From NCBI RefSeq assembly GCF_029978005.1, contig NZ_JARKOZ010000056.1:1-58380 (forward strand): 58,380 nt of DNA. Direction: 5' to 3'. The notes under the pieces were generated by a model that was not told the DNA's origin, did no database searches, and saw nothing but the letters and a program-made list of their open reading frames with translations. Positions 7,802-51,113 of this stretch are shown here, one piece after another. The position numbers were made by a program, and so were the translations under genes. Origin of the DNA: Solidesulfovibrio sp. (GTDB lineage Bacteria > Desulfobacterota > Desulfovibrionia > Desulfovibrionales > Desulfovibrionaceae). Every line of letters starts with the position of its first letter. The first letter of the stretch is position 1.

Positions 7802-8083
7802 TCACGATGCATGACTACGAACACAAACCGTAATATTATTAACTTCCTCTCTAGTTGACGAAACCATCATGACGAGATGCTCAATCAAAAAATCTGAACC
7901 ATCATCTTTTATCGCCCTCCATTCTGGATCAAACGGCATTTCTCCAAGCAATTGTTCTTTCGTTAAACATAAGGTGTTCGATGATTTTGAATTTAAATCT
8001 ATTACATTGCCATCATAAGAATGGATATCTATTCCTGCCGGCAATAAGGCAAAAACATTCACCAGCTGTTCATATGTAAGCAT
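7802..8083 (-). CDS. Truncated PAS-domain protein
   Basis: 93 residues. It contains the first part of a PAS sensory domain: IDIHSYDGNVIDLNSKSS, then WRAIKDDGSDFLIEHLVMM, matching the W-x-x-x-x-x-D-G-S motif. No output domain (kinase, GGDEF or regulator) follows before the stop, so it is either a stand-alone PAS peptide or the stub of a longer sensor. GAGG lies upstream of the ATG at 8083. It is more AT-rich than the neighbours, suggesting recent acquisition or decay. Confidence 0.5.
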   Translation of the reverse strand: MLTYEQLVNVFALLPAGIDIHSYDGNVIDLNSKSSNTLCLTKEQLLGEMPFDPEWRAIKDDGSDFLIEHLVMMVSSTREEVNNITVCVRSHAS

Positions 8084-8189
8084 AAGAGCCTCTAAGCAAA
8101 AGGCTTTTTAAATATTATAGCTTCTTAGCACAAGAATACGATCAAATGAAAGAGATAAATTCAAAAATACAAAATAAACGACCAAGCAC

Positions 8190-8354
8190 TCAGCTTTGAT
8201 CGAGAAGCATATTCGGTTCGGCGTACAAACCCCTGAACACTGGAACGCCTAAGCCATCTTTAACTTTCGAACTCATTCCGCCTAGCATCTCGCTAGACAC
8301 CAAAACTTGGATTTTATCAATCTCAAAAAATCGACATACTATGACATACAAATC
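8190..8354 (-). pseudogene. Possible gene remnant in AT-rich gap
   Basis: A minus-strand frame is open from 8354 to a stop at 8190. It reads VLVSSEMLGGMSSKVKDGLG then VPVFRGLYAEPNMLL, which looks protein-like and vaguely like racemase-type C-termini, but has no good start. Otherwise the stretch 8084-8580 holds no gene that I can support. Confidence 0.2.
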
Positions 8355-8520
8355 TCATAAAAAATGATTTGCCTCACCCATTATTGCCAGGCAAAACAAA
8401 TAACTATATACTGATTTACGCCATAAAACCTGATCCGCTCAAGGGAAAATGGGGGCCGCAGACAAATCTCACCCGGCAACGGGATCAACAAAGGACTGAC
8501 TGTTGTTTTCCTCCCTATCC

Positions 8521-8548
8521 TTGCATGCGATCCGTATTCTGTTATGGT
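8521..8548 (+). promoter_or_regulatory. Possible sigma70-type promoter
   Basis: TTGCAT (8521-8526), 16 bases, then TATGGT (8543-8548), about 30 bases upstream of the ribosome binding site of the sugar dehydrogenase gene. A weak match to consensus. Confidence 0.3.
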
Positions 8549-8580
8549 TAGGCAAAGCCTGTTCTTCAAGGAGGCATACC

Positions 8581-9705
8581 ATGTCGCACCGTAATTCCAG
8601 CATGCCGGGACCAAGTCTGTGGTGTGTGATCACTCTGGTCGTGTTCGGAAACATGATGGCAGGACTCGGCCCCGCCTTTTGCGCCAAACCAGACATGGCG
8701 TCCATCAGTCTGCCGCCCGGATTTTCCATCCAGATTTATGCCGCAGTGCCTGGGGCGCGCTCCATGGCCCTTGGTGCAAAGGGCACGATCTTTGTCGGCA
8801 CTCGCGATGAGGGCAAGGTCTACGCCGTGTCCGGGAAAGACCCGGGGAATATCACTGTGCAGGTCATCGCTTCGGGACTGACCGAACCCAACGGCGTGGC
8901 TTTTCGGGACGGTGACCTCTATGTGGCCGACGTGGACAAGATTTTACGCTTTCATGATATCGAAAGTCATTTGAACGATCCCTCAATACCCGAACGCGTG
9001 CCTGCCAGTCTTCCAAGCGACAGGCACCACGGCTGGAGGTACATCGCCTTCGGACCGGACGGGAAACTATACATACCGGTCGGCGCGCCCTGTAATGCCT
9101 GCCGCCGCGACCCGCCTTACAACACCATCCAGCGGCTCGACATCGCAACCGGCCAGCAGGAGGTCTTTGCCCGGGGTATTCGCAACACCGTGGGTTTCGA
9201 CTGGCACCCCTTGACCGGCGAGCTCTGGTTTACGGAAAACGGCCGGGACTGGCTCGGTGACAACACCCCTCCCGACAGCCTCAACCGCGCGCCCGTCCCC
9301 GGCCTTGATTTCGGTTTTCCCTTCTGCAATGCCGGCCAGCCCGACCCGGAATTCGGCAAGGATGCGGACTGCTCGCGTTACGCCCCGAATGCAGCACACA
9401 TCCAGGCCCACAGCGCCGCCCTGGGCATGAAGTTCTACGCCGGCAACATGTTCCCCCAAGCGTACCGCAACAGTATTTTCATCGCCGAGCACGGATCCTG
9501 GAACCGCTCCACCCCGGTGGGCTACCGCGTGGCCGTGGCTACCATCAACACTGACGGCACGGCCCGCTACGAGCCTTTCGCTACAGGCTGGCTTCAAGGA
9601 AAATCCGCCTGGGGTCGACCGGTAGATGTGCTTGTCATGCCCGATGGCGCGCTGCTGGTCAGCGATGACCGAGCCGGCCTGCTCTATCGGATCACCTACA
9701 GGTAA
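8581..9705 (+). CDS. Secreted PQQ-dependent sugar dehydrogenase-like beta-propeller protein
   Basis: 374 residues from ATG 8581, with AAGGAGG eight bases upstream; longer in-frame starts lack a signal peptide at the right place. A signal peptide is seen (WCVITLVVFGNMMAGLG, cleavage near AFCA). The mature protein matches the soluble aldose/sorbosone dehydrogenase family: RHHGWRYIAFGPDGKLYIPV, GAPCNACRRDPP, FARGIRNTVGFDWHPLTGEL and AEHGSWNRSTPVGYRV. Such proteins are six-bladed propellers in the periplasm that oxidise sugars with PQQ; the cofactor here is inferred. The Cys pair CNAC is typical of this subgroup. Single gene, running toward the prophage. Confidence 0.85.
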   Translation: MSHRNSSMPGPSLWCVITLVVFGNMMAGLGPAFCAKPDMASISLPPGFSIQIYAAVPGARSMALGAKGTIFVGTRDEGKVYAVSGKDPGNITVQVIASGLTEPNGVAFRDGDLYVADVDKILRFHDIESHLNDPSIPERVPASLPSDRHHGWRYIAFGPDGKLYIPVGAPCNACRRDPPYNTIQRLDIATGQQEVFARGIRNTVGFDWHPLTGELWFTENGRDWLGDNTPPDSLNRAPVPGLDFGFPFCNAGQPDPEFGKDADCSRYAPNAAHIQAHSAALGMKFYAGNMFPQAYRNSIFIAEHGSWNRSTPVGYRVAVATINTDGTARYEPFATGWLQGKSAWGRPVDVLVMPDGALLVSDDRAGLLYRITYR

Positions 9706-9814
9706 TGTGTTTGAATGCAATTCTCCACCCCAGAGAAGGTAGTGATGAATGGTCCGAAAAGGCCCGGGCAGGTCAGAGCGGCCTTTGCAAAAGTTGAAAA
9801 TGAGGGTGGGCAAC

Positions 9815-9856
9815 AAAAAAGCCCGTGGGGCGCTGTGACAGCACATCCACGGGCTT
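9815..9856 (-). terminator. Intrinsic terminator facing leftward transcription
   Basis: AAGCCCGTGG (9819-9828) pairs perfectly with CCACGGGCTT (9847-9856). On the minus strand the hairpin is followed by TTTTTTG. It can stop transcripts coming from the prophage late operon or, before integration, from the tRNA operon. Confidence 0.75.
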
Positions 9857-9880
9857 CAGGAGGGGCGAAAAAACTGCGGA

Positions 9881-9930
9881 AGAAAAAGAGGAAGGCGTCA
9901 AGACCCCGCTATCGCGGGAACTTGACGCCT
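9881..9930 (-). terminator. Second hairpin terminator, adjacent to attL
   Basis: AGGCGTCAAG (9893-9902) pairs with CTTGACGCCT (9921-9930). A nested CCCGC/GCGGG stem lies inside. On the minus strand it is followed by the T-rich CCTCTTTTTCTT. It lies just downstream of the tRNA-Glu 3' remnant, so it is probably the original terminator of the tRNA-Gln/Glu transcript. Confidence 0.7.
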
Positions 9931-9939
9931 TTGAATTCG

Positions 9940-9986
9940 TTGGCGTCCCCAAGGGGATTTGAACCCCTGTTACCGGCGTGAAAGGC
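9940..9986 (-). other. attL core (3' part of tRNA-Glu)
   Basis: 47 bases identical to 51067-51113. It carries the tRNA-Glu 3' end (CCA, acceptor 3' strand, T-arm, variable loop, anticodon loop) but not the 5' half, so it is a displaced tRNA fragment left by site-specific integration. Confidence 0.95.
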
Positions 9987-10080
9987 TGCTGGCCCCTCTG
10001 GCTTCCACTCTGAAAATCCAGCAATCACGCCATTTTTATCCCATCATCCCCCATTTCTAAAAACTCTCTTCCACTACCAT

Positions 10081-10100
10081 CTTTACGGCCACATTTACGG
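10081..10100 (+). promoter_or_regulatory. Candidate integrase arm-type sites, left arm
   Basis: CTTTACGG (10081-10088) and ATTTACGG (10093-10100), spaced 12 bases apart, lie about 95 bases inside attL. The same octamer pair with the same 12-base period occurs inside attR (51021-51040), as expected for arm binding sites of a tyrosine integrase. Confidence 0.55.
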
Positions 10101-10116
10101 GGTATCCTGGAGTCCG

Positions 10117-10818
10117 CTAAGGCCACGCCACCCCGGATAAGACCTTATCCACGGCCACGGCATCGCCGGCAGCGTCAACCGCCGTCTGCGCCCTGGTGCA
10201 TGCCCGGTACAGGGCATCCGTCCAGAGAGCAATTTCCGCCGTGAGAGCCCGGAACGATTCCGACGTGTGCGCCACCGGATTCCCGCTGGCATCATCCCAG
10301 GTGAAGCCATTGGGGAGGGCCATGCCGCCGGCCAGCTTGGCTTCCAGTCCCGTCATCCAATCCCGGACGGTCTTGTTGACCTTGTAGACATGCCCTTGGC
10401 TGTCGGTGAAGGTGCCGAACATGCGGGCGTCGGTCCACCTGTCGAGCATGGCCCTGGCCGTGGCCTTGATCGCCTCCATGTCGTCAGCCGGGGGGGGAAC
10501 GGCCCTGTCCTGGCATCCCCAGCCAAGAGCGTCCGCCACCGTGACGCCGATCCTGGACAGACCTTCCCCTTGCCCGAGCATCCATTGGTCCAGGTGCCTG
10601 GCCGTGGGCGTGCCGGTCGCATCGTAATCCGTCCGGACACGATGCCCGGCAACAGTTTCGACCTGGGTGTTAAGGGGCAGGTCGCCCTGGGACGCCCACC
10701 CGTACCGCTCATCCAGCAGGGCCTGCACGAACGCAAGCGCCTGGCCGTGATACGCTGGGTCAGCCAGAAGGTTCAAAACATCCTGGCGAGAATTGATGAT
10801 CACGGGGAATCCGTTCAT
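10117..10818 (-). CDS. Phage tail-associated protein, DUF4376-like
   Basis: 233 residues, the last gene of the leftward late operon. GGAGGCC lies directly before the ATG. The C-terminal half (GTFTDSQGHVYKVNKTVRDW, then LTAEIALWTDALYRACTRAQ) resembles DUF4376, a domain found in proteins beside tail fibre genes and often linked to fibre assembly. Its position after the receptor-binding protein fits a tail-fibre accessory or chaperone role, which is an inference. It occupies the place where Avd and reverse transcriptase lie in BPP-1. Confidence 0.55.
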   Translation of the reverse strand: MNGFPVIINSRQDVLNLLADPAYHGQALAFVQALLDERYGWASQGDLPLNTQVETVAGHRVRTDYDATGTPTARHLDQWMLGQGEGLSRIGVTVADALGWGCQDRAVPPPADDMEAIKATARAMLDRWTDARMFGTFTDSQGHVYKVNKTVRDWMTGLEAKLAGGMALPNGFTWDDASGNPVAHTSESFRALTAEIALWTDALYRACTRAQTAVDAAGDAVAVDKVLSGVAWP

Positions 10819-10873
10819 ATGGCCTCCTTATGAAAGGGTGTAGTAACGATCTATCCGCTTCACGGTGGCGACG

Positions 10874-10951
10874 AGCGGACTGTTATTCCAATTCGAACTA
10901 CGTGAGCCGCAATTCGCACTGTTATTCCAATTGCCGCCCAAGATCGCACGG
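10874..10951 (-). repeat. DGR template repeat (TR)
   Basis: 78 bases homologous to the 3' part of the upstream tail gene (11057-11134). The 12 mismatches all fall on adenines of the minus strand (19 adenines in the segment). In the frame of the tail gene the TR reads GGNWNNSANCG and SRSSNWNNSP, with the AAY-rich codons typical of DGR templates. The open frame continues past the TR as VATVKRIDRYYTLS and stops 11 bases before the next gene. A stop codon just upstream (about 10963) prevents expression as part of the tail gene. Confidence 0.9.
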
Positions 10952-11001
10952 GAGACGCATCAGCCAAATATTCGCGGCGCGAGACGCGTTACGGAGCGTC
11001 G

Positions 11002-12603
11002 TTATGCGGCCAGCGGCTCCGCGACCCCGCGAGCCCCGTAACTCGCAATCAGACCCAGCGGACCGCTAGCCCAAGACGAACTACGTGAGCCGCAATTCGC
11101 ACCGCCAGTCCAATCGCCGCCCAAGAGCGCACGGTTGGGCGCTTGGTAGTGCTGACCAGCCACGCCCGAGTCATTGCCATCGAAGGCGTTGACCCAGGCC
11201 GCCGAGGACGCGCCGCCGCCGGCCTCCTCGCCCCACTGCCAGAGGTTGCCACAGCAGTCCTCACAGCCGACGTTGCTGATCATGCGCCGGCCGGCCGTGT
11301 CGGATTTCCCGCCCGTGGTGCCAGGGTCCGCACTACCAGTGATGTTGGTCCCCTGGTTACTGCCCAGGCTGGCGGCCACGAACTCGGTTTGGGTCAGCAT
11401 CCGCTTGCCGATCTGGCCGAGCCACTGGCTGAATTTGTACCAATGGAAGGCCGGGCTGCTGGTCCCGTCAGCGCAGGTGGCGTTGTAGGCCGACACGAGC
11501 TTGCCGCCGCTGACAGAGGCCAAGTAGATGTCCACCCATTTGCCGAGGCCATCCACGTACACCATGCCCTCGGGGGCGCAGACGGGCCGGAACTTCGCGT
11601 CCCACACCGATGCCGGCAGGATGTCCCCGGCCAGGTAGCCGGAAAGCGTGTGGCCGCTGATCGTGCCCACGGCCGCGCACAGGCAGTGGAAGCCGCCGAT
11701 CTTGCGGGAGGTCGTGGCATCAAAACCGCTGGGGTATGTGGCGTTGGCGGAAACCAGCAACTTCAGCGATCCAGCGTTGATGCAGGCGTAGACGTAGAAA
11801 TCCTTGCCCGCTCGAGCCGAGGCCACGGTGTAATCGGTGGTGACGCTGTCCCAGGTGGCGGCCAAGGACAGGTCCAGGACCTGCTGCGCGGTCAAGACCA
11901 GGTACGTGCCGTTGACATCAACCAGCATCCGGTTCGGGCTCAGGATTATGAGCCTGTCAGCCGCGACCGAAACGGTTTTGGCCGCAAAGCGGATATCCCT
12001 GGCGAAGATTCCCGGGACATTGCTGGTGGGCGTCGGCAGGTTGGCAGACGGGACCTTCCCGTCCGTGCCCAACGGGGCAACGCCGCTGGCGACACCCTTC
12101 GCGGAGATGGGGATTGCGCCGACGTCAGCCGAGTTCTGGATTCGGGTGGAATACCAAACTCGCACGAGGTTGGCCGTCAGCGTGTGTCCCGTGTCCATCG
12201 CAAGCGTGACGGTTTGGCCAGCGATCCCAGATACAAGACCGTACTTGATCCCATCCGTGCCGCAATCTGCCTTGATGCGCATGCCCACGGTCAGATTGGC
12301 GGCATCATCCGTGCTCACCAAAAAGGTGTTCTCGGTAGCATAGGTGGAGGCGACCGGCCCCTTCCATATCGTGGCGACAGCACTCAGACCGGCCGGGGTG
12401 ACGGCCCTGAGAGCGTCGGCCCCGGCCATGGCCTCTGCGATGGTGGAGAGTTCCACCAGCCCGGCGGCTGTTTCCGTGGCCGCGCCGGTGGAACTCACGG
12501 CCAATCCGTTGAGGTTCTGTAAGAAGGCATTGAGCCACCGCTTGGCGCTGGTCCCGATACCGCCTTCGCCGTTTGCCCGGGGAACAATGTTTTTGGTCGC
12601 CAT
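11002..12603 (-). CDS. Tail fibre / tropism determinant with C-type-lectin-like VR domain
   Basis: 533 residues. The N-terminal part has the tail-fibre phrase GADALRAVTPAGL. The C-terminal domain begins about residue 330 (CAPEGMVYVDGLGKWVDIYL) and continues MLTQTEFVAASLGSNQGTNI and RRMISNVGCEDCCGNLWQWG. It ends with LGGDW...SYGARGVAEP, the formylglycine-generating-enzyme/C-type-lectin fold used by DGR variable proteins such as Mtd of BPP-1. It should sit at the tail tip and bind the host surface. The VR covers residues about 490-516, so the ligand-binding face is the diversified part. Confidence 0.88.
   Translation of the reverse strand: MATKNIVPRANGEGGIGTSAKRWLNAFLQNLNGLAVSSTGAATETAAGLVELSTIAEAMAGADALRAVTPAGLSAVATIWKGPVASTYATENTFLVSTDDAANLTVGMRIKADCGTDGIKYGLVSGIAGQTVTLAMDTGHTLTANLVRVWYSTRIQNSADVGAIPISAKGVASGVAPLGTDGKVPSANLPTPTSNVPGIFARDIRFAAKTVSVAADRLIILSPNRMLVDVNGTYLVLTAQQVLDLSLAATWDSVTTDYTVASARAGKDFYVYACINAGSLKLLVSANATYPSGFDATTSRKIGGFHCLCAAVGTISGHTLSGYLAGDILPASVWDAKFRPVCAPEGMVYVDGLGKWVDIYLASVSGGKLVSAYNATCADGTSSPAFHWYKFSQWLGQIGKRMLTQTEFVAASLGSNQGTNITGSADPGTTGGKSDTAGRRMISNVGCEDCCGNLWQWGEEAGGGASSAAWVNAFDGNDSGVAGQHYQAPNRALLGGDWTGGANCGSRSSSWASGPLGLIASYGARGVAEPLAA
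11015..11035 (-). promoter_or_regulatory. Hairpin just downstream of VR
   Basis: GGCTC-c-GCG (11015-11023) pairs with CGC-GAGCC (11028-11035), leaving the tetraloop ACCC and one bulged base. In the BPP-1 DGR, an 8-bp stem with a 4-base loop shortly after VR stimulates retrohoming. This hairpin has similar size and place, 22 bases after the VR end. Functional equivalence is inference. Confidence 0.4.
11057..11134 (-). repeat. DGR variable repeat (VR) in tail-fibre gene
   Basis: Encodes residues about 490-516 of the 533-residue tail protein. Compared with the TR the coded changes are I to L, N to D, N to T, N to G, S to G, N to S, N to A, N to S and S to G. Every nucleotide change is at a TR adenine. 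The constant part (GCGAATTGCGGCTCACGT) is identical. Confidence 0.92.
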
Positions 12604-12612
12604 GGAATCTCC

Positions 12613-13530
12613 TTATCTGGGCTGAATGTCGCCATTGGCATCCAGGTCGAATTCGGCGCTGTAACCAGGGATAACGGCCGGCATCATGTCTCCGCTGTCA
12701 TCCAGGTCAAAAAAATCCGTCATGCGCGTGGTCAGCCTGACCCAATTGGCCGAGGTGTCCGGGGCTTCGCCTACGATGTCGGTGCCGATGCACCGGTAGG
12801 TATTGCCATCGGTGTATGCCGTGATGTCCGGGAAGCTGTACGATGTGCCCGCGTCCCACGGAGGTGCGGCGCTGTTGGCCTCGGCCGATGTGGCGTAGCC
12901 CTGGGCGGCGCTGGCCGCGGCGACGGCAACCCCTTTGGCCAATTCCGTGGCAGCGGCGTCGTCATCGCATGCGATCCTGTCAGCTGCGACCTGATCCGCA
13001 TCAGCCTTTGCCGATGCCGCGCTTTCGGCAGCCTGCTGCGCGGACGCCGTGGCGGTTGCCAGGTCTCCGACAGCATCAAGGATGTCCTCGGCCGACATCG
13101 GGGTGTCCGTGTTCGTCTCGGTGACCTTGATCGATCTGTCCAGCTGCTCCTGAATCTGCTGCGAGATGCAGACCAGACGGTCCAAGGCGGCTTCATGCGA
13201 TTCAGCCGGAAATGACCCGCCTTCGGTGTAGTCTGTCTCCTGTTTGAGCTGGAGGACACGTTTGAGCAAGATCTTCTCGCCGACAGGGGGAGGCCCCTTG
13301 CTGCCGGAAACGGCGTAATCGCCGATAAGGGTGACCATTCCTCCCCCAATGTCACCGACTCCGGAAACAGCGAAGTCCGTGTCCAGTGTGAGGGGAGTCT
13401 CAATGCCTTCGGCATCCAAGAGAATGACAACCATGTCGGAAGCATCGAAGACGCGAAAGGTGTACGGGAACGCCACCTGACCGCCAGTCCCTGAATACAG
13501 GACCTTGTTCGTCGTGGATTCGATGGTCAT
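12613..13530 (-). CDS. Tail fibre protein, T7 gp17 N-terminal-like
   Basis: 305 residues. The N-terminal 120 residues resemble the virion-attachment domain of T7-type fibres: GTGGQVAFPYTFRVFDASDM, a GGGMVTL segment, then ILLKRVLQLKQETDYTEGG and FPAESHEAALDRLVCISQQI. The middle is an Ala-rich coiled coil (about 150-215). A carbohydrate-binding-like WDAGTSYSFPDITAYTDGNTY segment follows. It probably links the tail to the lectin-like tip protein encoded immediately downstream. Confidence 0.8.
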   Translation of the reverse strand: MTIESTTNKVLYSGTGGQVAFPYTFRVFDASDMVVILLDAEGIETPLTLDTDFAVSGVGDIGGGMVTLIGDYAVSGSKGPPPVGEKILLKRVLQLKQETDYTEGGSFPAESHEAALDRLVCISQQIQEQLDRSIKVTETNTDTPMSAEDILDAVGDLATATASAQQAAESAASAKADADQVAADRIACDDDAAATELAKGVAVAAASAAQGYATSAEANSAAPPWDAGTSYSFPDITAYTDGNTYRCIGTDIVGEAPDTSANWVRLTTRMTDFFDLDDSGDMMPAVIPGYSAEFDLDANGDIQPR

Positions 13531-16500
13531 TTACTGGTTCCTTCCTTTTTCCCTGAGCCCAAGAGTCATCAGGGCCTGCAACCTGGGGTTCTCCTTCATG
13601 AGACGGATTTGCGCCGCTTGGCGGTAGACCTGGATTTCCCGCTGGATCGTCATTTTTTTCTGCTCATCATCCAGCTGCTTGTAGGCCCTGGTCCTGATGA
13701 TGTGCTCCAAGTCCGCCTTCATGGTGCGTCCAACGCCATCGTCACCAGGGTTGCGCATGACCTGGGTGGAAAGTTCAATGAACCGGTCATACTCCTGGGG
13801 GGTGAGCTCCAGGGGAACGCCCTGGAAGGATTGCGTTCGCCTCGGGATGGACGGTCCCCACTCCAGACGAAGCAACTCCTTGTCGATTTCGGACACGTCC
13901 CCGGTCTGCACCTTCAGGGGAGAAAGCCAGCCCAAATACAGCCCCTCGCCGGCAGCGTGGACTTGGTAGGGGTCGCCCCAGATATCCCGCTTCGGCGGCA
14001 GGCTGGAGGACAGGCCCGGGATGCGGGACTTCATGGCGTCCACCCATGACCAGACAGCCTTGACCTCTGGGTCTGTCTCCACCACCACGTCGCGCAAAAT
14101 CGAGGGCACGAAGCTGGAAGCGAATCCCTGGAGCATCCGAGGGCCTTTTGATTCCGGAAACGTGACGGCGTTCATGGCATCCGCCACGCCCTGCAGCCAT
14201 GTCTTACTGGTGATGGTTTTGGCCGTGGCCAGGGCCAGGGCCGTGAACAGGGTAGGCAAGTCGCGTTCCTGCCCCACCTGGTCCCATTCCTGGATGATCA
14301 TGCGGGCATTGGCCGCCATGGAAAATAGCGTGCCCACCGGTTCGGTGCGGTCGTAGGCCACCCACTGATCGCCAACCTTGACGCTGTTCGGCTGGTAGAC
14401 ACGCCGCCAAGCCTCGCGCTCTTTGGGTTCGCTGGGTCCGTCTCCGGTGATGAGGCCGGACGCGTTGGCCATGACGGCCAGGCCCATGATGGACGATCCC
14501 AACGCCACCCGGGCCAAGGCCAGATCACGCTTTGCCCCGCCAGACTGGAAGTCATCCCAAAAGGATTTCTTGATGAAGGCGATGGGGGTACGATCCAGGC
14601 TGTACTGCAGGATGTTGTAGGGCGTGGACACGAACGGCATGAGCAGCTTGAGGAACAGATTGGAATTCCTGAAGCGGTTGAGAGCCGACATGGTGGACCC
14701 CATGTCCTGGGTGAAAGTCTGGACCCTGGCGAAATCCAGGGCGGCCTTGGCCATGTCGGCCGGCGGCGCATCCATGAGCTCCTTGGCCCTGGCCGTGATG
14801 TCTTCCCCCTGCCGGCCTTCAATGGCGGCCTGACGGAAAGCCAGGCCGGCCAGGCCTTGGCGGTAGCCCAGGAACTTGAAATATTCGTCTTCCGCGCCAA
14901 GAGCGCGGCCAGGAATGCCGAGACCTGTCCAGATGGCGTCTGCAGCCTTGTTCCAGGACTCGGGGATGTTCTTGCCGATCCAGCCCGGAGCCCCCTGGCC
15001 GAACATGGGGGCATAGTCCTGCTTCTGCTGGCCGCCGAACTTGGATTCCCCGGTTTTCATGGCCTCCCAGGCCAGTTTGAGGGCATCGGTCTGGTTTTGG
15101 ACCAGGGCAAAGGCCATGGCCTTGGCTTCCAAAACACTCACGTCGCCGTCACCTTCGGATAGCCAGCCCCAGGGAAGACCGGTCGTGTCCCGGGCCGTCT
15201 TGAATCCCTTGCCGATGAGAGAGGCCACGGCCCGTTCCGGGATGGCCATGCCGGCCACCAGCATGTTGCCCATCATGTTCGCCACATGGGTCTTGGGCGA
15301 AGAGAGCATGCACATATAACGGTAGGCGAGAAACCAGTCCCCGAAGGTCCGCTGCCGTACATTATGGACTAAGGTGTCCACTTTGTGCATGGGGACAGGA
15401 CCTTGTTGGGCGGCATCGACCAGGGAATTCGCCGCCTCCTCGATGAGCCGTCGGCCGCCGGCCTGGTCGGTCAGCTTGGCCATGTCCTCGCCGGTCAGCT
15501 GGTTCATGAGCGCAGGGTCGAGGAATTGCGTGGAAGCAAGCATCTTCCATTGGTTGAGGGCGCGACCGGCCTCGGCCCGCAGCCCGGCCACGTGGGCCTG
15601 CAGCGCGGCGTGCACCTCCATGCGCCGGCGGAAGGCCAAAAGCGAAGCGTCGGAGTTGTCGCCGCCCTTGATGTCCCTGGCTCGGCGCATGAGGTCCTCG
15701 GCCGAGGCATTGAGGATCACCCTGGCCGCATAGGTCTTTTCCGCGTTCCAGCCTTCGCCGCGCATCCTGGCCAGCAAGTCGGCTTCGGTCATGCCGAGAT
15801 CGGAAGCGGCCTGGGCCGTGGTATCGTGGCTCCGTTCGTAGCGTCTGGCCGCATCGATGTCCGGGGCCAAGACGGTCTCGACCTTGTTGATGAGCCCGGC
15901 AATGTCCTCTTCCGAGTTGATTTTGCTGTAATTGATGCCCAGGGATTTGGCCTTGAGCGGCGGAGGAAGGTTGTTGTCGATGACGTCAGGCTCTATGGAC
16001 TGCAGCTTATCCTGGACCTCGAAAGGCACGTCCTTGTCGCCGAAGCCCCAGCGGCCGATTTCTTCCCAGTTCTTCGACTCGGAAACAGGCCGCACGCGGT
16101 CCTGCTCTCTCGGCCCCGGCGCGCCGATGCCCTTGAAGGTACGCCCTTCCTGCAGGGCCTGCTGCACCAGCTGATCGAAGTTTTGCGGCGCGCGGCTCTC
16201 GGGCAGGACGCCCAAGCGATCCAGCGTCCGGTCAAAGACACCCTTGACGCGGCCAACAAACTCACCCCAGGGAGTTTCGCCCTGACCCATGAACAAGCCC
16301 TGGCTGAGGTAGGACCGGGCCACCTCGTCCGCCCCGAATTCCGCGAAGTCCACCCCCCTGGCCTCGGCCCCGGAATCCTTCCAAAACTGCCGCAACTCCT
16401 GCTCGACCTGGGGGAACTGCGGCAGCAGGCGTTCCACGATGTTGTGACCGCCAATCTCATGCAGCAGGTCCACGGCCGGCATGTGGCCGTCGTAGAGCTT

Positions 16501-18438
16501 CACCAGATCACGGAACACGCCTGGCTCAACCTCCTGGTTGGGCGTGTGGCTGCCGACGATCTTGCCTTCTCCGGAAATGCCGTACTGGCTGGAAAGCTCT
16601 TTACTGGCCAACATGAGCGCCGGAACAACCTCGACCTGCACCCGATCCGACAGGCCGGGGATGTCCTTGACCAAGCGTTTGGCCACTTCATAGGTGGCCT
16701 GGTCCGTCTCCCCGTTCATCATGGCCCGGTGCAGGTTCATGATGTTGGCATCGCTCATGGCATCGTAATCAACACCAGGCAGGCGCTGGTTCCAGGGCGT
16801 GCGCGTCTGCGGCGTGGCGATGCCCATGCCCATGCCAACGCCGAAGGCTTCGGCCAGTTGGCCCGGGGCGGTGACACCCTCGGCCAGGGCCTGGCCAGAG
16901 AAGGCCGCCCCGGTCGTAGGCGCGCGCAAAGCCATGGGCAGGGCGTTCGTCGCGGCCAGGATGCCTTTCATAATGCCCCAGGTGGCGGCCGACTTGGCAG
17001 CCGTGGGCAAGCCGCCTTCGGTGTAGCCCTTGAGGCCGGCGAAGGCCGGACCCATGGCGAACTCCATCATGCCCGGGCCGCTCCCCAGGATGCCGCCGAC
17101 CACGTTGGTCATGTAGTCGTCGTATTTGACCTGCCCCAGGAAGTGCTTGGCCCAATAGTCGGACTGCTCCATGAGGGCCTGGAACACGCCGCCCTTGTCG
17201 GTCCCGGTTGCCGCGGCGACATCGCTGGAAAGATCGTCCAGAGTGCGGAAGAAACCGGCCATGCCGGCATAGGTGTTGCCCAGGGCCTTGGACCCGTAGT
17301 CCTTGGTTCGCTGCCAGGCCTCGGAGAAAATGTCTCCCGTGGCCTCCAGGGGGGTGCGCTGGTTTCTGGCTTGCACCACGGGGGCCTGACCGAATCCTGG
17401 AATGCCGCCAGTCCCATTGGAGCCACCAGAGTAGCCCGGGACCTTCAGCACGTCGGCAAGTTCCTGGTCATTCGAAGCGGTCAAGGCGGCTTTTCGGCCT
17501 GTTTCCACTCTGACCATGCTTTTCTGCAAGGCAAACAGCGTGTTCGGATCATGCAGGTCAAGCGGTTGATCGGGGCTGACCCCCATGTCCTTGGAAACGG
17601 TATTTATGTATTCCTGTGTCTTGTTCTCGTTCGGGGGAGCGTAGCGGCTCACGATCCCGGTGACAGTATTCAGGCCATGCTTGTCCTGGTAACGCAGCAA
17701 AAGGTCTTTCTGCGCTGAAAGGCCCTCTTCCATGGTCCCGTAGCTTTGAAAGCTGGTGCTGCTGGCCCGGATATTCCCCGGGTTGTTGTTCCTGAGCCAG
17801 ACAGGGGCCTTGCCGCCGGGGAATGAAATCGGGGAGGGTTGGGGCAGAGTCTTCCCGGCCGGGGCTGCGGTAGCGGTCGTGTCGGGAACGCCGGCCTGCC
17901 CGGATTCATCCTGGCCATACTGCTGTGCCTGCTTCTCGTGGAGTTGCTGCGCGTAGGCCGTGGCGTCCTCGGGCGTGGAAAACTTCCCCAGATGTTTCCC
18001 CGTCTGGTGGTACTGCTGAATGGCTTCATCGTCGGAGAGAATGCGGCTTCCGTCTTCGGCCGTGGTCGGAATGAGGATTTCCCCGTTCCCCTCATTAAAG
18101 GACATGGAACGGACCGTGGAAATGGTGCCATCGGCATTCTTGATGACAGGCCGATTGTTGAGGTCGATATTGCCGGCCTCTGTCGGCTTCGGCATGGCCG
18201 GCTCTTCGGCTGTCTTGTTGAAAGACTGCTGAAAAACGGAAAGTTTCGCCTTTTGCTCCTCCACCTTGGCGGCCACGTCCTGGCCCTCCGGAGACTGCGC
18301 CCAGGTCTGGAACGGATCAGGCGGCGGCGGCACGATCCCGGCGTCCACAAGGGAATGCTCGGCGTCCCGGATGATCCGGTCTTCAGCCTTCGTCTGGTAG
18401 GTGTCCCAGAAATTGTCCTGCTGCTGCTCGTCAAGCAT
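13531..18438 (-). CDS. Very large internal virion / peptidoglycan-processing protein
   Basis: 1635 residues. Start at 18438 is preferred because TAATG overlaps the stop of the upstream gene; a start 12 bases earlier is possible. Around residues 220-330 (WLRNNNPGNIRASS, then YGTMEEGLSAQKDLLLRYQ) it has the NPGN motif of phage murein-cleaving structural proteins. The rest is long and helical, with hydrophobic stretches near 430-560 and 1330-1400. This fits a T7 gp16-like internal protein ejected into the cell to pass DNA through wall and membrane. The specific enzymatic activity is inferred. Confidence 0.7.
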   Translation of the reverse strand: MLDEQQQDNFWDTYQTKAEDRIIRDAEHSLVDAGIVPPPPDPFQTWAQSPEGQDVAAKVEEQKAKLSVFQQSFNKTAEEPAMPKPTEAGNIDLNNRPVIKNADGTISTVRSMSFNEGNGEILIPTTAEDGSRILSDDEAIQQYHQTGKHLGKFSTPEDATAYAQQLHEKQAQQYGQDESGQAGVPDTTATAAPAGKTLPQPSPISFPGGKAPVWLRNNNPGNIRASSTSFQSYGTMEEGLSAQKDLLLRYQDKHGLNTVTGIVSRYAPPNENKTQEYINTVSKDMGVSPDQPLDLHDPNTLFALQKSMVRVETGRKAALTASNDQELADVLKVPGYSGGSNGTGGIPGFGQAPVVQARNQRTPLEATGDIFSEAWQRTKDYGSKALGNTYAGMAGFFRTLDDLSSDVAAATGTDKGGVFQALMEQSDYWAKHFLGQVKYDDYMTNVVGGILGSGPGMMEFAMGPAFAGLKGYTEGGLPTAAKSAATWGIMKGILAATNALPMALRAPTTGAAFSGQALAEGVTAPGQLAEAFGVGMGMGIATPQTRTPWNQRLPGVDYDAMSDANIMNLHRAMMNGETDQATYEVAKRLVKDIPGLSDRVQVEVVPALMLASKELSSQYGISGEGKIVGSHTPNQEVEPGVFRDLVKLYDGHMPAVDLLHEIGGHNIVERLLPQFPQVEQELRQFWKDSGAEARGVDFAEFGADEVARSYLSQGLFMGQGETPWGEFVGRVKGVFDRTLDRLGVLPESRAPQNFDQLVQQALQEGRTFKGIGAPGPREQDRVRPVSESKNWEEIGRWGFGDKDVPFEVQDKLQSIEPDVIDNNLPPPLKAKSLGINYSKINSEEDIAGLINKVETVLAPDIDAARRYERSHDTTAQAASDLGMTEADLLARMRGEGWNAEKTYAARVILNASAEDLMRRARDIKGGDNSDASLLAFRRRMEVHAALQAHVAGLRAEAGRALNQWKMLASTQFLDPALMNQLTGEDMAKLTDQAGGRRLIEEAANSLVDAAQQGPVPMHKVDTLVHNVRQRTFGDWFLAYRYMCMLSSPKTHVANMMGNMLVAGMAIPERAVASLIGKGFKTARDTTGLPWGWLSEGDGDVSVLEAKAMAFALVQNQTDALKLAWEAMKTGESKFGGQQKQDYAPMFGQGAPGWIGKNIPESWNKAADAIWTGLGIPGRALGAEDEYFKFLGYRQGLAGLAFRQAAIEGRQGEDITARAKELMDAPPADMAKAALDFARVQTFTQDMGSTMSALNRFRNSNLFLKLLMPFVSTPYNILQYSLDRTPIAFIKKSFWDDFQSGGAKRDLALARVALGSSIMGLAVMANASGLITGDGPSEPKEREAWRRVYQPNSVKVGDQWVAYDRTEPVGTLFSMAANARMIIQEWDQVGQERDLPTLFTALALATAKTITSKTWLQGVADAMNAVTFPESKGPRMLQGFASSFVPSILRDVVVETDPEVKAVWSWVDAMKSRIPGLSSSLPPKRDIWGDPYQVHAAGEGLYLGWLSPLKVQTGDVSEIDKELLRLEWGPSIPRRTQSFQGVPLELTPQEYDRFIELSTQVMRNPGDDGVGRTMKADLEHIIRTRAYKQLDDEQKKMTIQREIQVYRQAAQIRLMKENPRLQALMTLGLREKGRNQ

Positions 18439-19586
18439 TATGACCACCATTTGGCTTTGACGCCGCTGTTATAGACTGAGGTGACGCCACCCAATAAACT
18501 GGAACCGGCCTTGGCCAGGGAACCCCAATCCGTCGAATCCGCCTGGCTGGAATACTTCTCGGCCGCATTGGCCGAACTGGTGCCGCCGGTGACCTGATCC
18601 ATGATGTCGTATTGCAGCCCCCAGATTGTGTCCTGGGTGCTCTGGTCCAGCTTCCAGACCGTGCGCCAACCCTGTTCGCGGTACTGATCGGCGGTGCGTT
18701 CGGATTCCGTTTGCGTGACCAGGGTGTTGTATTCCAGCTTGGTATCAATGGCGTTCAGCTTGGTATCAAGCTGCTGCTGGTAGGCGTCGTTTTTGATCTG
18801 CGCTTCCTGAAGCAGGGATTCGCCCTTGTTCATGGCGTCGGTGACGACTTCCTGAGCCTGGATGTGTCCGGTCTGCCGGGTGGTGGCCGCATCATAGCCG
18901 GTCTGAAAGTCCACGTCGGCGATCTGGGAACCGGCCTTGAGTTTGAGGTAGGAGACCTTCTTGGCGTTGATGTCGTCTTGCTGCTGCATGACCTCGAGGG
19001 CGCTTCCGGTCATCTCCCGGCCCTGGGCCGCGATCTTGGCCGCCAGTTCCCCCTGCTGCTGCACGGCCTCATCGCGGAGTTGCCCCAGCTGGAAATCCCG
19101 TTCCGACTGGAGTTCCCTGACCTGGCCTTCACCCTTGGCTTCGGTGTACTTGGCCTTGGCCTCGGCCGTGGCATTGGCAATGTCGGCCTCCGTCAAGGCG
19201 GTCTTGAACAGGTTCCCGACCTGGGTCAGCGCCAGGTCAACGGAGAGTTTCGCGGAAGTGGATGCGTCCTGGATGGCAGAGAGCTTTTCCTGATTGGCAA
19301 AGAGCTTCCCGTAAGCCAGTTCCACGGGGGTCCACGCCTCCACCCATTGCGCCTCGCGGTCGTAGGTGAAGGCGGTGTATTCAGACTCCATGTCGGATTC
19401 GTTCTGAATCCGCACGGCATCAAGCACGTCCCGCTGCGCGTTGATGAAGGAAGCGTCAGCCTGCTTTTGGGCGGCATCAGCCTTGGCCGAAGCAGCATCC
19501 GACTTGCTGGTGTCGAAGAGGGAAGAACCGACCTGAACCCCGGTGCCAACGATGCCGGCCCCGGCGGCTACTCCTGCGGCAGACAT
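18438..19586 (-). CDS. Internal virion protein (T7 gp14-like position)
   Basis: 382 residues. A Gly/Ala-rich hydrophobic N-terminus (AAGVAAGAGIVGTGVQVGSS) is followed by a long Ala/Gln-rich helical region. Composition and gene position between two other internal virion genes fit the T7 gp14-type channel component. The C-terminus again is Gly-rich (AKAGSSLLGGVTSVYNSG), as in membrane-inserting ejection proteins. No enzymatic motif. The call rests on context more than on sequence. Confidence 0.55.
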   Translation of the reverse strand: MSAAGVAAGAGIVGTGVQVGSSLFDTSKSDAASAKADAAQKQADASFINAQRDVLDAVRIQNESDMESEYTAFTYDREAQWVEAWTPVELAYGKLFANQEKLSAIQDASTSAKLSVDLALTQVGNLFKTALTEADIANATAEAKAKYTEAKGEGQVRELQSERDFQLGQLRDEAVQQQGELAAKIAAQGREMTGSALEVMQQQDDINAKKVSYLKLKAGSQIADVDFQTGYDAATTRQTGHIQAQEVVTDAMNKGESLLQEAQIKNDAYQQQLDTKLNAIDTKLEYNTLVTQTESERTADQYREQGWRTVWKLDQSTQDTIWGLQYDIMDQVTGGTSSANAAEKYSSQADSTDWGSLAKAGSSLLGGVTSVYNSGVKAKWWS

Positions 19587-25266: not shown

Positions 25267-26262
25267 TTAGCTGACGGCCGATTCGGTGTTGAGAATGGCG
25301 TCACAGCGGTTGACCGGGATGCCGTCGAAAGAAACGACGTGCTTCCCGGAGACCTGCTCCATGGTCAGGGTGGAGGCGGCCACCTTGTTGGCGATCTGCC
25401 GGCGCAGGAAGCTGCGGACGGTGCGCGAGCAGTAGAAGACCGGCCGGCCCATCTTGATTTCGGGAAGCAGTTCGATGGCCTGGGTCATCAGGTCGATGAG
25501 ATCGGCACCGCTGGCGGCGTTTTTCGTGAGGGCGGTCACGTCGATGTTGGCGACACGCACGACGTACCGCCAGTCACGGACGGTCATGCCGATGTCCCAC
25601 TTGTAGTGGGTGCGGTAGCCCTGGTACTTGCCGCCGTTGGCATCCTCGAGGGTCACTTCGCCCAGGTCGTTGTGCTGCAGGCCGGCCTTGCTCCCCTTGG
25701 GGAAGATGCCGTGAATGGTGTTTTCGCCCCAGCAGACCAGCCAGACGCTGGTGTTGGTGCTGCCCGAGCCCGATCCGGACAGGACGTTGCCGGCGGACTG
25801 GGAACCGGACAGGGCGTTGTAGCGCGGGGCCAAGCCCAGGAAGCGTTCGGGGTTCACGGCCGTGTTGCCGTAGAACACGGTGGACGCCATGGCCTGGTTC
25901 ATGGCTTCGATGAAGGCTCGGTCCTCGGAGAGCCGAAAGGCCGACGTGTTGCCGTTGAGATCGGCCAGGGCCTTGTCCACCTCGGCATAGGCCTCGAGCA
26001 TGCCGCACGAGTCGGTGACCTGCGCGGTCGAGCTCTTGGACGGCTGCACGCCATAGTTGAGCATGCGCCAGGTGGCCGAGGGCAGGCCGGTGCGCACGGT
26101 GGTCTTGTGCCCGGTGGGCAGGTTGCCCTGGACGAAGGGCATATCGTCCAGGATGGGGTTGGTCAGATTGAGCAGTTCGGCCACGGCGTCGATTTTGCCG
26201 TCAGGGTCCAAACGCTTGGCCCAGTCGGCCAGGGTGATGAAGTTGCTGCCAAGGGTGGCCAT
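25267..26262 (-). CDS. Major capsid protein (BPP-1 Bbp17-like)
   Basis: 331 residues. Several near-invariant phrases of this HK97-fold subgroup are present: TLADWAKRLDPDGKIDAVAE, GNLPTGHKTTVRTGLP, WRMLNYGVQPSKSSTAQVTD, MASTVFYGNTAVNPERFLGL and HGIFPKGSKAGLQHNDLG. There is no separate protease gene nearby. A scaffold-like protein lies immediately upstream, as expected for shell assembly. Confidence 0.92.
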   Translation of the reverse strand: MATLGSNFITLADWAKRLDPDGKIDAVAELLNLTNPILDDMPFVQGNLPTGHKTTVRTGLPSATWRMLNYGVQPSKSSTAQVTDSCGMLEAYAEVDKALADLNGNTSAFRLSEDRAFIEAMNQAMASTVFYGNTAVNPERFLGLAPRYNALSGSQSAGNVLSGSGSGSTNTSVWLVCWGENTIHGIFPKGSKAGLQHNDLGEVTLEDANGGKYQGYRTHYKWDIGMTVRDWRYVVRVANIDVTALTKNAASGADLIDLMTQAIELLPEIKMGRPVFYCSRTVRSFLRRQIANKVAASTLTMEQVSGKHVVSFDGIPVNRCDAILNTESAVS

Positions 26263-39721: not shown

Positions 39722-39955
39722 TCAGGCGGCTCCTGACTGGTCGGGTTGAGGGGCGGCGGGAAGGGGGGCTGGGCGTCGGTCTCCGTAGAGGAATGGCCAG
39801 AGCTTTTCGAGGTTTTTGGAATGCATCCCTTGGCGTTCACCCTTCTGGACTCGCGTTATGGCTTGAACGCTTTTGATCCCGGCCTCTCTGGCAAGGCGGC
39901 AAGCCGACCAGCCCGTTTCCTGAAAAAAAGTGGTGAGGTCTTCGGTAAGGTTCAT
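39722..39955 (-). CDS. Cro-like HTH regulator
   Basis: 77 residues. LTTFFQETGWSACRLAREAG, then KSVQAITRVQKGERQGMHSK, is a Cro/C1-type helix-turn-helix (recognition helix AGIKSVQAITRV). First gene of the leftward lytic operon. It is divergent to the S24 repressor and its promoter overlaps operator O1. Confidence 0.75.
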   Translation of the reverse strand: MNLTEDLTTFFQETGWSACRLAREAGIKSVQAITRVQKGERQGMHSKNLEKLWPFLYGDRRPAPLPAAPQPDQSGAA

Positions 39956-39961
39956 GAGGTC

Positions 39962-39989
39962 ATCATAGCTAATTAGCTATGCTCGTCAA
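39962..39989 (-). promoter_or_regulatory. Lytic leftward promoter (cro promoter)
   Basis: On the minus strand: TTGACG (39989-39984), 16 bases, TATGAT (39967-39962), very close to sigma70 consensus. The spacer contains the operator palindrome, so repressor binding would block RNA polymerase directly. Confidence 0.75.
39964..39981. promoter_or_regulatory. Operator O1 (perfect palindrome)
   Basis: CATAGCTAATTAGCTATG, an 18-bp perfect palindrome with core TAGC-taatta-GCTA. The same TAGC-N6-GCTA core occurs at 40012-40025, 42132-42145 (one mismatch) and 42164-42177. Confidence 0.75.
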
Positions 39990-40011
39990 GAAAGAATAAG
40001 CCAAACAGCCA

Positions 40012-40025
40012 TAGCCAAAGAGCTA
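40012..40025. promoter_or_regulatory. Operator O2
   Basis: TAGC-caaaga-GCTA, located just upstream of the repressor gene, where it could mediate autoregulation. Confidence 0.65.
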
Positions 40026-40031
40026 CACAAT

Positions 40032-41598: not shown

Positions 41599-41642
41599 TC
41601 ACGCGCCTTCCATTTTTCTGACCAATCCGCTATAAAATTGCG

Positions 41643-42068: not shown

Positions 42069-42092
42069 CTGCCTTGTTATTCGCTTTCCAAC

Positions 42093-42120
42093 GTCCCCGC
42101 TCCGGCGGGGATTTTTTTTT
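42093..42120 (+). terminator. Intrinsic terminator of the repressor/cargo operon
   Basis: TCCCCGC-tcc-GGCGGGGA followed by nine T. It separates the lysogeny operon from the operator-controlled promoter just downstream. Confidence 0.92.
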
Positions 42121-42131
42121 GGAGCCTTCTA

Positions 42132-42145
42132 TAGCTAAACGGCTT
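42132..42145. promoter_or_regulatory. Operator O3 (imperfect)
   Basis: TAGC-taaacg-GCTT; one mismatch to the TAGC-N6-GCTA consensus. Lies 32 bases before O4. Confidence 0.55.
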
Positions 42146-42153
42146 GGGCTTGC

Positions 42154-42908: not shown

Positions 42909-42978
42909 CTGGAGAAGACGCGAAACACGGCCGCCGCCTGAATCCATCGGGACATGGCGGCGGCCAGGAGGAAAGGCC

Positions 42979-43179: not shown

Positions 43180-43182
43180 GTC

Positions 43183-49798: not shown

Positions 49799-50118
49799 TG
49801 ATGACCGCCGCTCAGGTAGCCGAAAAGCTTGGCATGCACATCAACACGGTCTACAGGCTGAAGCGGAAGCTTGGAGGGGTCCAGCTTGTTGCCGGCGGAC
49901 GCCTGATGTTCTCTGAAAAACGGATAAACGAGATTCTGGAGCCATCCAATGCCCTATCCATTGAAGAACGGGAAGTGGAAAGCAACCCGTATGATAAACG
50001 GCAAGAGGAAGGAAAAAACGTGTGCAACAAAAAGGGAAGCTCTCACATGGGAAGCCGCCCAAACCGAGGAAGTATGGGACGCACGCCAGACGTGCATAAC
50101 GTGCTTGGAGTGGTGTAA
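49798..50118 (+). CDS. Excisionase/MerR-type HTH protein
   Basis: 106 residues; TGATG coupling. TAAQVAEKLGMHINTVYRLK then LVAGGRLMFSEKRINEILE is an excisionase-type winged HTH, complete by about residue 50. The remaining 55 residues are coded in the region that also encodes the integrase N-terminus in another frame, and read like a shadow. May be Xis, placed directly before int. Confidence 0.65.
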   Translation: MMTAAQVAEKLGMHINTVYRLKRKLGGVQLVAGGRLMFSEKRINEILEPSNALSIEEREVESNPYDKRQEEGKNVCNKKGSSHMGSRPNRGSMGRTPDVHNVLGVV

Positions 50119-50983
50119 CGCATACCTCTCCTATGCACAGGAGCGCTTTTCAAAAAAGACGTATGAAGAAAAACGCTTCGCCTTCCGCAACTTGATTCGC
50201 TTTGTCGAAAAAGACACTCCTGTCGAAGAAATACCCATGAAAAAAATCCTGGACGCTTTGCGAAACAGGGCCAAGTCCAGAAGCGGAAACGCGGCGAACA
50301 AGGACAGGAAGAACCTTGCAGCCGCATGGCATTGGGGAAGGAAGTACCTCGCCTTCAACGAGAAAAACCCGTTCTTGGCGGTTGACCGTTTTTCCCACGA
50401 TGAAAAGGGGCGTTACGTTCCGACGCCGGCCGATTTTGACAAGGCCATGGCAGCCGCTGGCCCTGAGGATCGCGTCTTCCTTCTTACGGCCCTCCATACC
50501 GGTGCGCGCCGCGGGGAGCTTTTTCGCCTGACGTGGCCGGACATCGACTTGGCGAATGGGACCATCCGGCTCGGGACACGTAAGACAGCCACCGGGGGAA
50601 TGGAGTATGCGGCCATCCCCATGACGCCGGAACTTCGGCAGGCCATGGCCGAGCACAGGAGGAAAGGCCCCCGCTCCATGACCGTCTTCACCACGGTTGA
50701 GGGAGACGACTTCACGAGCCGGCAGCATTACATGGCCAGGCTCTGCAAGCGGGCTTGCGTCAAGCCGTTCGGGTTCCACGCTATCCGGCATCTGTCAGCG
50801 GTAATGATGTACCATGCTGGCCAGCCGGTCAGCGTGATTCAAGCCATGCTCAGACACAAGAACGCGGGGACCACGGAACGATACCTGAAGAGGTTGGGCC
50901 TGGACCCTGAGAAGCTGCGCAAGGCGGTCGAGGCCGTCTTCTCGAAACCGCAGATTGACCATCTGTCTGAGGTAAAAAAATAG
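49949..50983 (+). CDS. int: Tyrosine-type site-specific integrase
   Basis: 344 residues. Arm-binding N-terminus (KNGKWKATRMINGKRKEKTC), core-binding domain about 50-150, and a catalytic domain with R187 (HTGARRGEL), K212, H277-x-x-R280 (FHAIRH), H303 and nucleophile Y312 (TTERYLK). All six catalytic positions are present. Lies 84 bases from attR, as usual. Its start lies inside the HTH gene in another frame. Confidence 0.93.
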   Translation: MPYPLKNGKWKATRMINGKRKEKTCATKREALTWEAAQTEEVWDARQTCITCLEWCNAYLSYAQERFSKKTYEEKRFAFRNLIRFVEKDTPVEEIPMKKILDALRNRAKSRSGNAANKDRKNLAAAWHWGRKYLAFNEKNPFLAVDRFSHDEKGRYVPTPADFDKAMAAAGPEDRVFLLTALHTGARRGELFRLTWPDIDLANGTIRLGTRKTATGGMEYAAIPMTPELRQAMAEHRRKGPRSMTVFTTVEGDDFTSRQHYMARLCKRACVKPFGFHAIRHLSAVMMYHAGQPVSVIQAMLRHKNAGTTERYLKRLGLDPEKLRKAVEAVFSKPQIDHLSEVKK

Positions 50984-51066: not shown

Positions 51067-51113
51067 TTGGCGTCCCCAAGGGGATTTGAACCCCTGTTAC
51101 CGGCGTGAAAGGC
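51067..51113 (-). other. attR core within tRNA-Glu
   Basis: 47 bases identical to 9940-9986. Here they form the 3' half of the intact tRNA-Glu. Confidence 0.95.

What the first reader, a model, noticed from the sequence alone, without database searches (positions are those of the whole stretch)
10874..11134. DGR template and variable repeat with strictly adenine-specific differences
Seen directly: 78 aligned bases between 10874-10951 and 11057-11134 differ at 12 positions, and every one is a T on the plus strand of the TR, i.e. an adenine in the coding strand (19 available). Replacements include G, C and T. The VR lies in the ligand-binding end of a C-type-lectin-like tail protein. This is the defining signature of mutagenic retrohoming, known from BPP-1, whose capsid genes this prophage also resembles.
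Basis: partly seen in the sequence, partly recalled or inferred. Interest (0 to 1): 0.93.

Follow-up and report, generated by a model that had tools for sequence, protein, structure and literature searches.

The report
Phage hypermutation cassette missing its engine
A bacterial virus carries the marks of a system that rapidly rewrites its host-recognition protein, but here the reverse-transcriptase engine has been cut out, although a near-identical sister virus with the same cut shows a different version of the rewritten segment.

Summary
In detail: TR 10874-10951 and VR 11057-11134 (coding strand minus) differ at 12 of 78 positions, all adenines of the TR. VR is the 3' end of an Mtd-like tail gene in a BPP-1-like prophage.

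"This is a DGR" holds for its history, not as a working element. A relative (L011, 88-93% DNA identity) has a 118-nt TR, spacer, DGR RT and a small partner gene (ORF101). The window jumps from inside the TR to the end of ORF101: about 1.43 kb is missing, and no DGR RT was found in the draft genome.

A second assembly (L060 and contigs of the same MAG) has the same junction and an identical TR stub. Over the 34.95 of 41.2 kb of prophage it covers, it differs from the window in two divergent tracts and in VR only: 10 VR positions, all template adenines, three beyond the stub; 0 differences in the other 33.6 kb. So VR was written by a full-length cassette, and recently exchanged or rewritten; recombination with RT-bearing siblings or writing in trans are both open. 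Reads are needed.

RT loss recurs in this family: L018, L024, L034.

The parts
11057..11134 (-). VR, the part still matched by the TR stub; 3' end of the tail gene
   Evidence: 12 of 78 differences, all at TR adenines
11017..11056 (-). VR, 3' continuation (40 nt) whose template is gone from the window; recognised by alignment to the 118-nt TR of L011
   Evidence: three of the ten window/L060 VR differences (11054, 11049, 11048) lie here
10874..10951 (-). TR stub (78 nt; 115-134 nt in the relatives with a full repeat), identical in L060
10872..10874 (.). deletion junction: window 10874 = L011 7731, window 10872 = L011 9167; 1,435 nt of L011 absent
   Evidence: same junction in L060
10828..10872 (-). 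remnant (last 14 codons and stop) of ORF101, the small gene that follows the RT in relatives
11002..12603 (-). Mtd-like tail protein gene, DGR target (533 aa)
10117..10818 (-). downstream gene, DUF4376 / weak tail-fibre match; intact beyond the deletion
9940..9986 (.). att core, left end of prophage
   Evidence: same 47 nt at 51067-51113; the L060/L086 contig joins the two ends
51067..51113 (.). att core, right end of prophage, overlapping tRNA-Glu 51068-51145
49949..50983 (+). integrase
   Evidence: phrog_1
25267..26262 (-). major head protein, 66% identical to BPP-1

Best explanation
This is the remnant of a BPP-1/Mtd-type diversity-generating retroelement in a BPP-1-like prophage. A deletion of about 1.43 kb joined position 78 of the TR to the tail end of ORF101. 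It removed the last 40 nt of the TR, the spacer, the whole RT gene and most of ORF101, and left the tail gene with its VR and the downstream gene whole (shown by comparison with L011; that it was one event is inferred). Such a cassette cannot run mutagenic retrohoming by itself (inferred: in BPP-1 the spacer recruits the RT complex and primes cDNA). The VR it carries was written from a full-length TR of the window's own type (adenine-only differences in the 78 nt still covered, and two marker bases that VR shares with its own TR and not with L011's). VR was changed or exchanged very recently, because a sister assembly with the same deletion, and no other point differences over 33.6 kb outside two divergent tracts, carries a different VR. 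That this comes from RT-bearing siblings, and whether by phage-phage recombination or by writing in trans, is inferred and open.
For: Adenine-only TR/VR differences, 12 of 12. Window 18600-10874 aligns to L011 at 88.6% up to L011 7731 and resumes at 93.2% at 9167 through to the att end; the missing stretch holds the TR end, RT (349 aa, PF00078 E 2e-13, phrog_1423 E 3e-118) and ORF101. No match to that RT in the own genome at E up to 10; PF00078 finds two RTs there, in open frames of 709 and 666 aa, retrotransposon-like by my eye. The same query matched 2 of 7 other records, one of them L011's own, and 2 of 14 genus genomes at 26-27% identity, so it is not blind. L060 has the identical TR and junction and 10 VR differences, 10 of 10 at template adenines, against 0 in 33,570 other covered positions outside the tracts. 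VR has bases 49 and 52 of the window TR, where L011's TR has others. Spacer role: passages of PMC12875486.
Against: The genome is a draft (224 contigs, 96.3% complete), so an RT on an unassembled piece cannot be excluded; the same holds for L060's MAG, which leaves 6.2 of 41.2 kb of prophage uncovered. No RT-bearing sibling with the window's own TR was found in IMG/VR by three exact patterns and a downstream-gene search, so the writers are inferred. In the 40 nt beyond the stub, VR differs from L011's TR at two non-adenine positions as well (100, 103), which I take as divergence of the lost TR end but cannot show. The two VRs share the same changed base at 11 template adenines, so they may share part of an ancestral VR; three of these bases are also in L011's VR, so constraint is another reading. 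The VR-downstream hairpin required in BPP-1 was not found by my simple scan in window or L011.
Confidence: 0.85

Rival explanations
1. Recombination: RT-bearing siblings make the VR variety, and crossovers between coinfecting near-identical phages move VRs into the RT-less background, or move the deletion into new VR backgrounds. This is a sub-reading of the best explanation.
For: L060 and its sister contig L085 show two clustered divergent tracts against the window (64 differences in 12046-13055; 20 in 15799-16054), the look of exchange with relatives; a second related phage (81-91%) sits in the same MAG.
Against: Exchange of VR alone needs crossovers on both sides within identical sequence: 936 nt upstream (12045-11110) and everything downstream to the att core are identical. 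The tracts may instead be assembly joins; one lies at a contig end.
Confidence: 0.5
2. Trans writing: a full-length cassette with the same TR, in a coinfecting or co-resident RT-bearing sibling, reverse transcribes its own TR and homes into the VR of the RT-less phage, which lives as a non-autonomous user of another's DGR.
For: Two RT-less near-identical phages with different VRs, 10 of 10 differences at template adenines, 3 of them outside the stub so that a full-length TR is needed. [quoted passage not shown]
Against: No helper is seen in either genome. Recombination explains the same data. The 11 shared changed bases are not what two full rewritings would give without constraint.
Confidence: 0.3
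3. The deletion is an assembly artefact and the phage has a full DGR.
For: Both genomes are drafts; VR variety is said to complicate assembly of reads (PMC5883640, passage). In L060 VR and junction are 175 nt apart, so one 141-mer cannot phase them.
Against: The same junction is in two records, it joins sequence that is not repeated there, and three other members of the family show the same kind of loss against an RT-bearing relative. L060 runs through the junction unbroken.
Confidence: 0.1
4. The cassette still works with an RT encoded elsewhere in the same genome and reads the 78-nt stub.
For: DGRs with targets remote from the RT are mentioned in PMC8144416 (passage).
Against: No DGR RT found; the spacer that primes cDNA in BPP-1 is gone; 3 of 10 VR differences lie outside the stub.
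Confidence: 0.03

Closest known systems
Bordetella phage BPP-1 DGR (mtd, avd, TR, brt)
   Same: Same target family (Mtd), same adenine rule, cassette next to the att end, homologous head and adaptor proteins
   Different: BPP-1 has bbp7 (avd; name recalled) between mtd and TR, a 134-nt TR and brt; here no avd match, a 78-nt TR stub and no RT
L011, IMGVR_UViG_3300006428_000006
   Same: Nearest RT-bearing relative found, 88.6% upstream and 93.2% downstream; same att end
   Different: Complete cassette: TR 118 nt (19 of 19 differences at A), spacer, RT, ORF101
RT-less DGR fragments of DUSEL4 Nanoarchaeota (PMC4372165, passages)
   Same: VRs with adenine-directed change at sites without an RT gene; the authors name fossil or remote diversification as options
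   Different: Those are cellular, with complete DGRs in the same genome; here a phage, none found in the genome, and a sister phage with the same deletion and another VR
BPP-1 delta-ATR laboratory phage (PMC3240598, passages)
   Same: An Mtd phage without avd, TR and brt
   Different: Man-made; here a natural deletion that leaves a TR stub

Membership tests
Diversity-generating retroelement (Mtd type) | TR/VR pair that differs at TR adenines | tested here: met
   12 of 12
Diversity-generating retroelement (Mtd type) | VR at the 3' end of a ligand-binding (C-type-lectin-like) gene | tested here: met
   Mtd structures E 3e-31; mtd_2nd; the lectin-like fold of Mtd is recalled
Diversity-generating retroelement (Mtd type) | DGR reverse transcriptase in the cassette | tested here: not met
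   absent relative to L011; none found in the draft genome
Diversity-generating retroelement (Mtd type) | Full TR with IMH* end and spacer | tested here: not met
   last 40 nt of TR and the spacer absent relative to L011
Diversity-generating retroelement (Mtd type) | Accessory protein (Avd or another) | tested here: not met
   no match to BPP-1 bbp7 in window 8001-20000 (single-sequence tblastn, not a sensitive test); ORF101 reduced to its last 14 codons
Diversity-generating retroelement (Mtd type) | Hairpin downstream of VR | tested here: inconclusive
   11 sequences scanned for stems of 6 or more and loops of 3-8: none in window, L060, L011, L012 and 5 further loci; found in BPP-1; a 6-bp one inside the VR of L024
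Diversity-generating retroelement (Mtd type) | VR changes in populations | tested here: inconclusive
   window and L060 differ at 10 VR positions, but the route is unknown and reads are not at hand
BPP-1-like temperate phage | Homologous head, adaptor, tail and integrase genes | tested here: met
   8 of 21 window ORFs given match BPP-1 at E 1e-3; head protein 66%, integrase only weakly (24%, E 6e-4)

The most novel reading that the evidence does not exclude
A natural RT-less phage lineage keeps changing its receptor-binding VR by using the DGR of RT-bearing siblings in trans: a cheater or satellite relation at the level of hypermutation. RT loss between VR and the next gene is a recurring state in this Mtd family (window/L060, L018, L024, and L034 with another ORF in place of the RT).
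Probability: 0.3. Interest if true: 0.68.

Novelty: new variant of a known kind. Interest (0 to 1): 0.45.

Why it matters
Surveys that start from the RT cannot see such cassettes. Here the deletion can be set against a near-identical sister, and the VR differs although the RT is gone from both. That makes a question testable outside the laboratory: whether phages share hypermutation machinery in trans or by recombination, and whether losing the RT is a stable way of life. It also marks ORF101 as a likely partner of the RT in DGRs without a recognisable Avd.

Tried and rejected
Rejected: chance repeat. Rejected: the two RTs of the own genome as DGR RTs; open frames of 709 and 666 aa, retrotransposon-like by my reading, no further family scan made. 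Rejected: L011's TR as template of the window's VR, because VR shares bases 49 and 52 with its own TR. Rejected: the stub as sole template of the VR variety, because 3 of 10 differences lie outside it. Rejected: ORF101 as homologue of BPP-1 bbp4, which has the same place (no match). Led nowhere: junction 24-mer and VR-downstream 24-mer in IMG/VR, 0 matches each; 395 genomes of the phylum and 288 of the family, only the window's own genome matched; phages collection at near identity, no match; Rfam, only two tRNAs; RNA fold of L011's spacer, z -1.2, not striking; a paper naming the source of L060's MAG, not found. Same-genus loci L044-L046 have a tail relative, no TR pair within 1.5 kb, and their genomes G012, G004, G008 no match to L011's RT.

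Full report
Observation. The pair 10874-10951 / 11057-11134 is real and the only such pair in 8000-14000. Read on the minus strand, 12 of 78 positions differ, all at the 19 adenines of the TR copy; chance 1.2e-9 by the hypergeometric. The VR closes a 533-aa tail protein that matches the solved Mtd proteins of Bordetella phages (E 3e-31; all 6 distinct sequences listed are Mtd) and Pfam mtd_2nd. The prophage lies between 47-nt att cores at 9940 and 51067, the latter overlapping a tRNA-Glu gene, and is BPP-1-like: 8 of 21 window ORFs given match BPP-1, the major head protein at 66%.

What is missing. The nearest RT-bearing relative found, L011 (an IMG/VR contig), aligns with the window at 88.6% from 18600 down to 10874, the last base of the 78-nt TR; the alignment resumes at 10872 with a part of L011 1,435 nt further on, at 93.2%, up to the att end. 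In L011 the stretch between holds the rest of the TR, a spacer of 140 nt, an RT of 349 aa (PF00078 E 2e-13, phrog_1423 E 3e-118) and most of a 101-aa frame, ORF101. The window keeps the last 14 codons of ORF101 and the next gene. By eye the junction shows at most a few bases of microhomology. The own genome (draft, 224 contigs) gave no match to L011's RT at E up to 10; PF00078 gave two frames that look like other RT kinds. The same query matched 2 of 14 genus genomes at 26-27% identity, and 2 of 7 records (L011's own and G015), which shows that the search can ring.

Sister phage. A scan of one genome per species gave 4 loci. L060, a 6,509-nt contig of a MAG titled Geobacteraceae D180_maxbin.001, has the same junction and an identical TR stub. 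It runs from the tail gene through the att core into the integrase, so the prophage ends are joined there, as in an excised, circular form. Further contigs of that MAG match the window: L085 19,384 nt with 20 differences, all within 15799-16054; L073 4,844 with 0; L074 4,452 with 0; L086 (the L060 contig) 3,296 with 3 at the att edge and 3,280 with 78. The 78 are 64 in 12046-13055, 10 in VR and 4 at the att edge. Recounted over the prophage (9940-51113, 41,174 nt): 34,954 nt covered, 94 differences, namely 64 and 20 in the two tracts and 10 in VR; 0 in the other 33,570 nt; 13208-15647 and 39735-43514 are not covered. Neighbouring contigs overlap by 141 nt and the title says k141, as MEGAHIT contigs do (recalled). 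Whether the window's genome comes from the same site is not known to me; the identity suggests it.

VR comparison. The ten VR differences (window 11109, 11106, 11105, 11103, 11082, 11076, 11075, 11054, 11049, 11048) are all at template adenines: seven in the stub, three in the part of VR whose template only L011 still shows. At four L060 has the plain A and the window another base, at three the reverse, at three both are changed to different bases. At 11 further template adenines both VRs carry the same changed base; of seven of these checked, three (20, 27, 71) have that base in L011's VR too and four (8, 65, 66, 69) do not. So the VRs may share part of an ancestor, or be constrained. VR bases 49 and 52 are those of the window's TR, not of L011's; beyond the stub VR also differs from L011's TR at 100 and 103, which are not adenines there. 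My reading: both VRs descend from writing by a full-length TR of the window's own type. Since the deletion is shared and the phages are otherwise the same where compared, the change or exchange of VR is recent.

Mechanism. Shown: adenine-only writing; absence of RT, spacer and TR end; shared junction; different VRs. Inferred: the stub cannot serve, because in BPP-1 the spacer recruits the RT complex and primes cDNA (PMC12875486, passages). Inferred: siblings with RT exist or existed. Two routes are then open. Trans writing has a laboratory precedent (PMC3240598, passages). Recombination fits the two divergent tracts and the second, related phage in the same MAG. An unphased assembly of a mixed population could mimic both: VR and junction are 175 nt apart, more than one 141-mer. 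That L060 is unbroken at the junction suggests that the RT-bearing form is rare or absent there (inference from how such assemblers treat branches, recalled).

Recurrence. Of 32 IMG/VR tail-gene loci, 14 have an RT hit (two pairs among them, L020/L021 and L033/L035, look like duplicates), 8 have none although 1.3-6 kb follow the matched stretch, and 10 end too early to tell. Three RT-less ones can be set against an RT-bearing relative: L018 lacks about 1,450 nt of L019 (90% identical), that is TR, RT and the first two thirds of ORF101; L024 lacks about 1,495 nt of L025 (72% identical) and keeps a 52-nt TR stub with 7 of 7 adenine differences; L034, 99.4% identical to L033, has about 820 nt with a 249-aa frame without a Pfam match over the cut-off in place of about 1,450 nt, and keeps a 63-nt stub with 12 of 12 adenine differences (12 of 13 over 66 nt). 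In each the loss stops before the downstream gene. Five others (L013, L015, L023, L030, L037) show neither RT nor a clear TR and may never have had one in this place.

Family pattern. In the TR/VR scan, which keeps only pairs with at least 75% adenine (or thymine) bias, 20 of 32 loci given passed, besides the window; one, L037, is a thymine-type pair upstream of the matched stretch and is probably unrelated. The other full repeats are 115-134 nt; the stubs 78 (window, L060), 52 (L024) and 63-66 (L034). Not all full pairs are pure: for instance L017 11 of 14, L027 14 of 17, BPP-1 18 of 22 adenines.

Literature. RT-less fragments with adenine-directed change are known from Nanoarchaeota (PMC4372165, passages). 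[quoted passage not shown] its section 11 was read. I saw no title or abstract start on a natural RT-less phage DGR with changing VR in the listings (9 of 10 shown; 20 of 28; 15 of 60; none found; 10 of 11; 10 of 17); most subscription papers are not held. Passages only were seen of PMC5883640, PMC11792537 and PMC12135933.

Verdict. A real DGR signature, an element most likely dead in cis, and a VR difference between RT-less sisters. Kind known, state unusual; the bold reading (phages using a sibling's DGR in trans) is neither shown nor excluded.

Noticed in passing
L011 8906-9211; relatives in the 80 loci: ORF101, about 100 aa, goes with the DGR RT: of the 80 best of 155 IMG/VR loci, 79 have an RT on the same strand, in 78 ending within -52 to +509 nt of ORF101's start (one hit ends 1.6 kb past it); in the 80th, L154, ORF101 starts at 177 of the locus, too near its end. 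No match to BPP-1 bbp7 (avd) in any, by single-sequence tblastn. No Pfam, PHROGs or NCBIfam match. AlphaFold model pLDDT 87, mostly beta; PDB matches weak, none at E 0.001, some to RPA single-strand-binding domains. Candidate partner of the RT in Avd-less DGRs; also in ANMV-1 virus.
   Followed up: partly
L034 5699-6518: A 249-aa frame of unclear family stands where the near-identical L033 has TR end, RT and ORF101.
   Followed up: partly
G014 contigs C129 and C140 (L083, L084): A second related phage, 81-91% to the window over most matched stretches and 91% to L011's record over 1.8 kb, in the same MAG as the sister phage; no match of these contigs to the window's tail and DGR region.
   Followed up: partly
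G000 contigs C29 and C32 (L001, L002): Two retrotransposon-like RT frames (open frames 709 and 666 aa), by eye of eukaryotic type, perhaps contamination of the draft.
   Followed up: no
window 42444-42870: Tandem-like repeats: L083 and L084 match this stretch in several registers about 90 nt apart.
   Followed up: no
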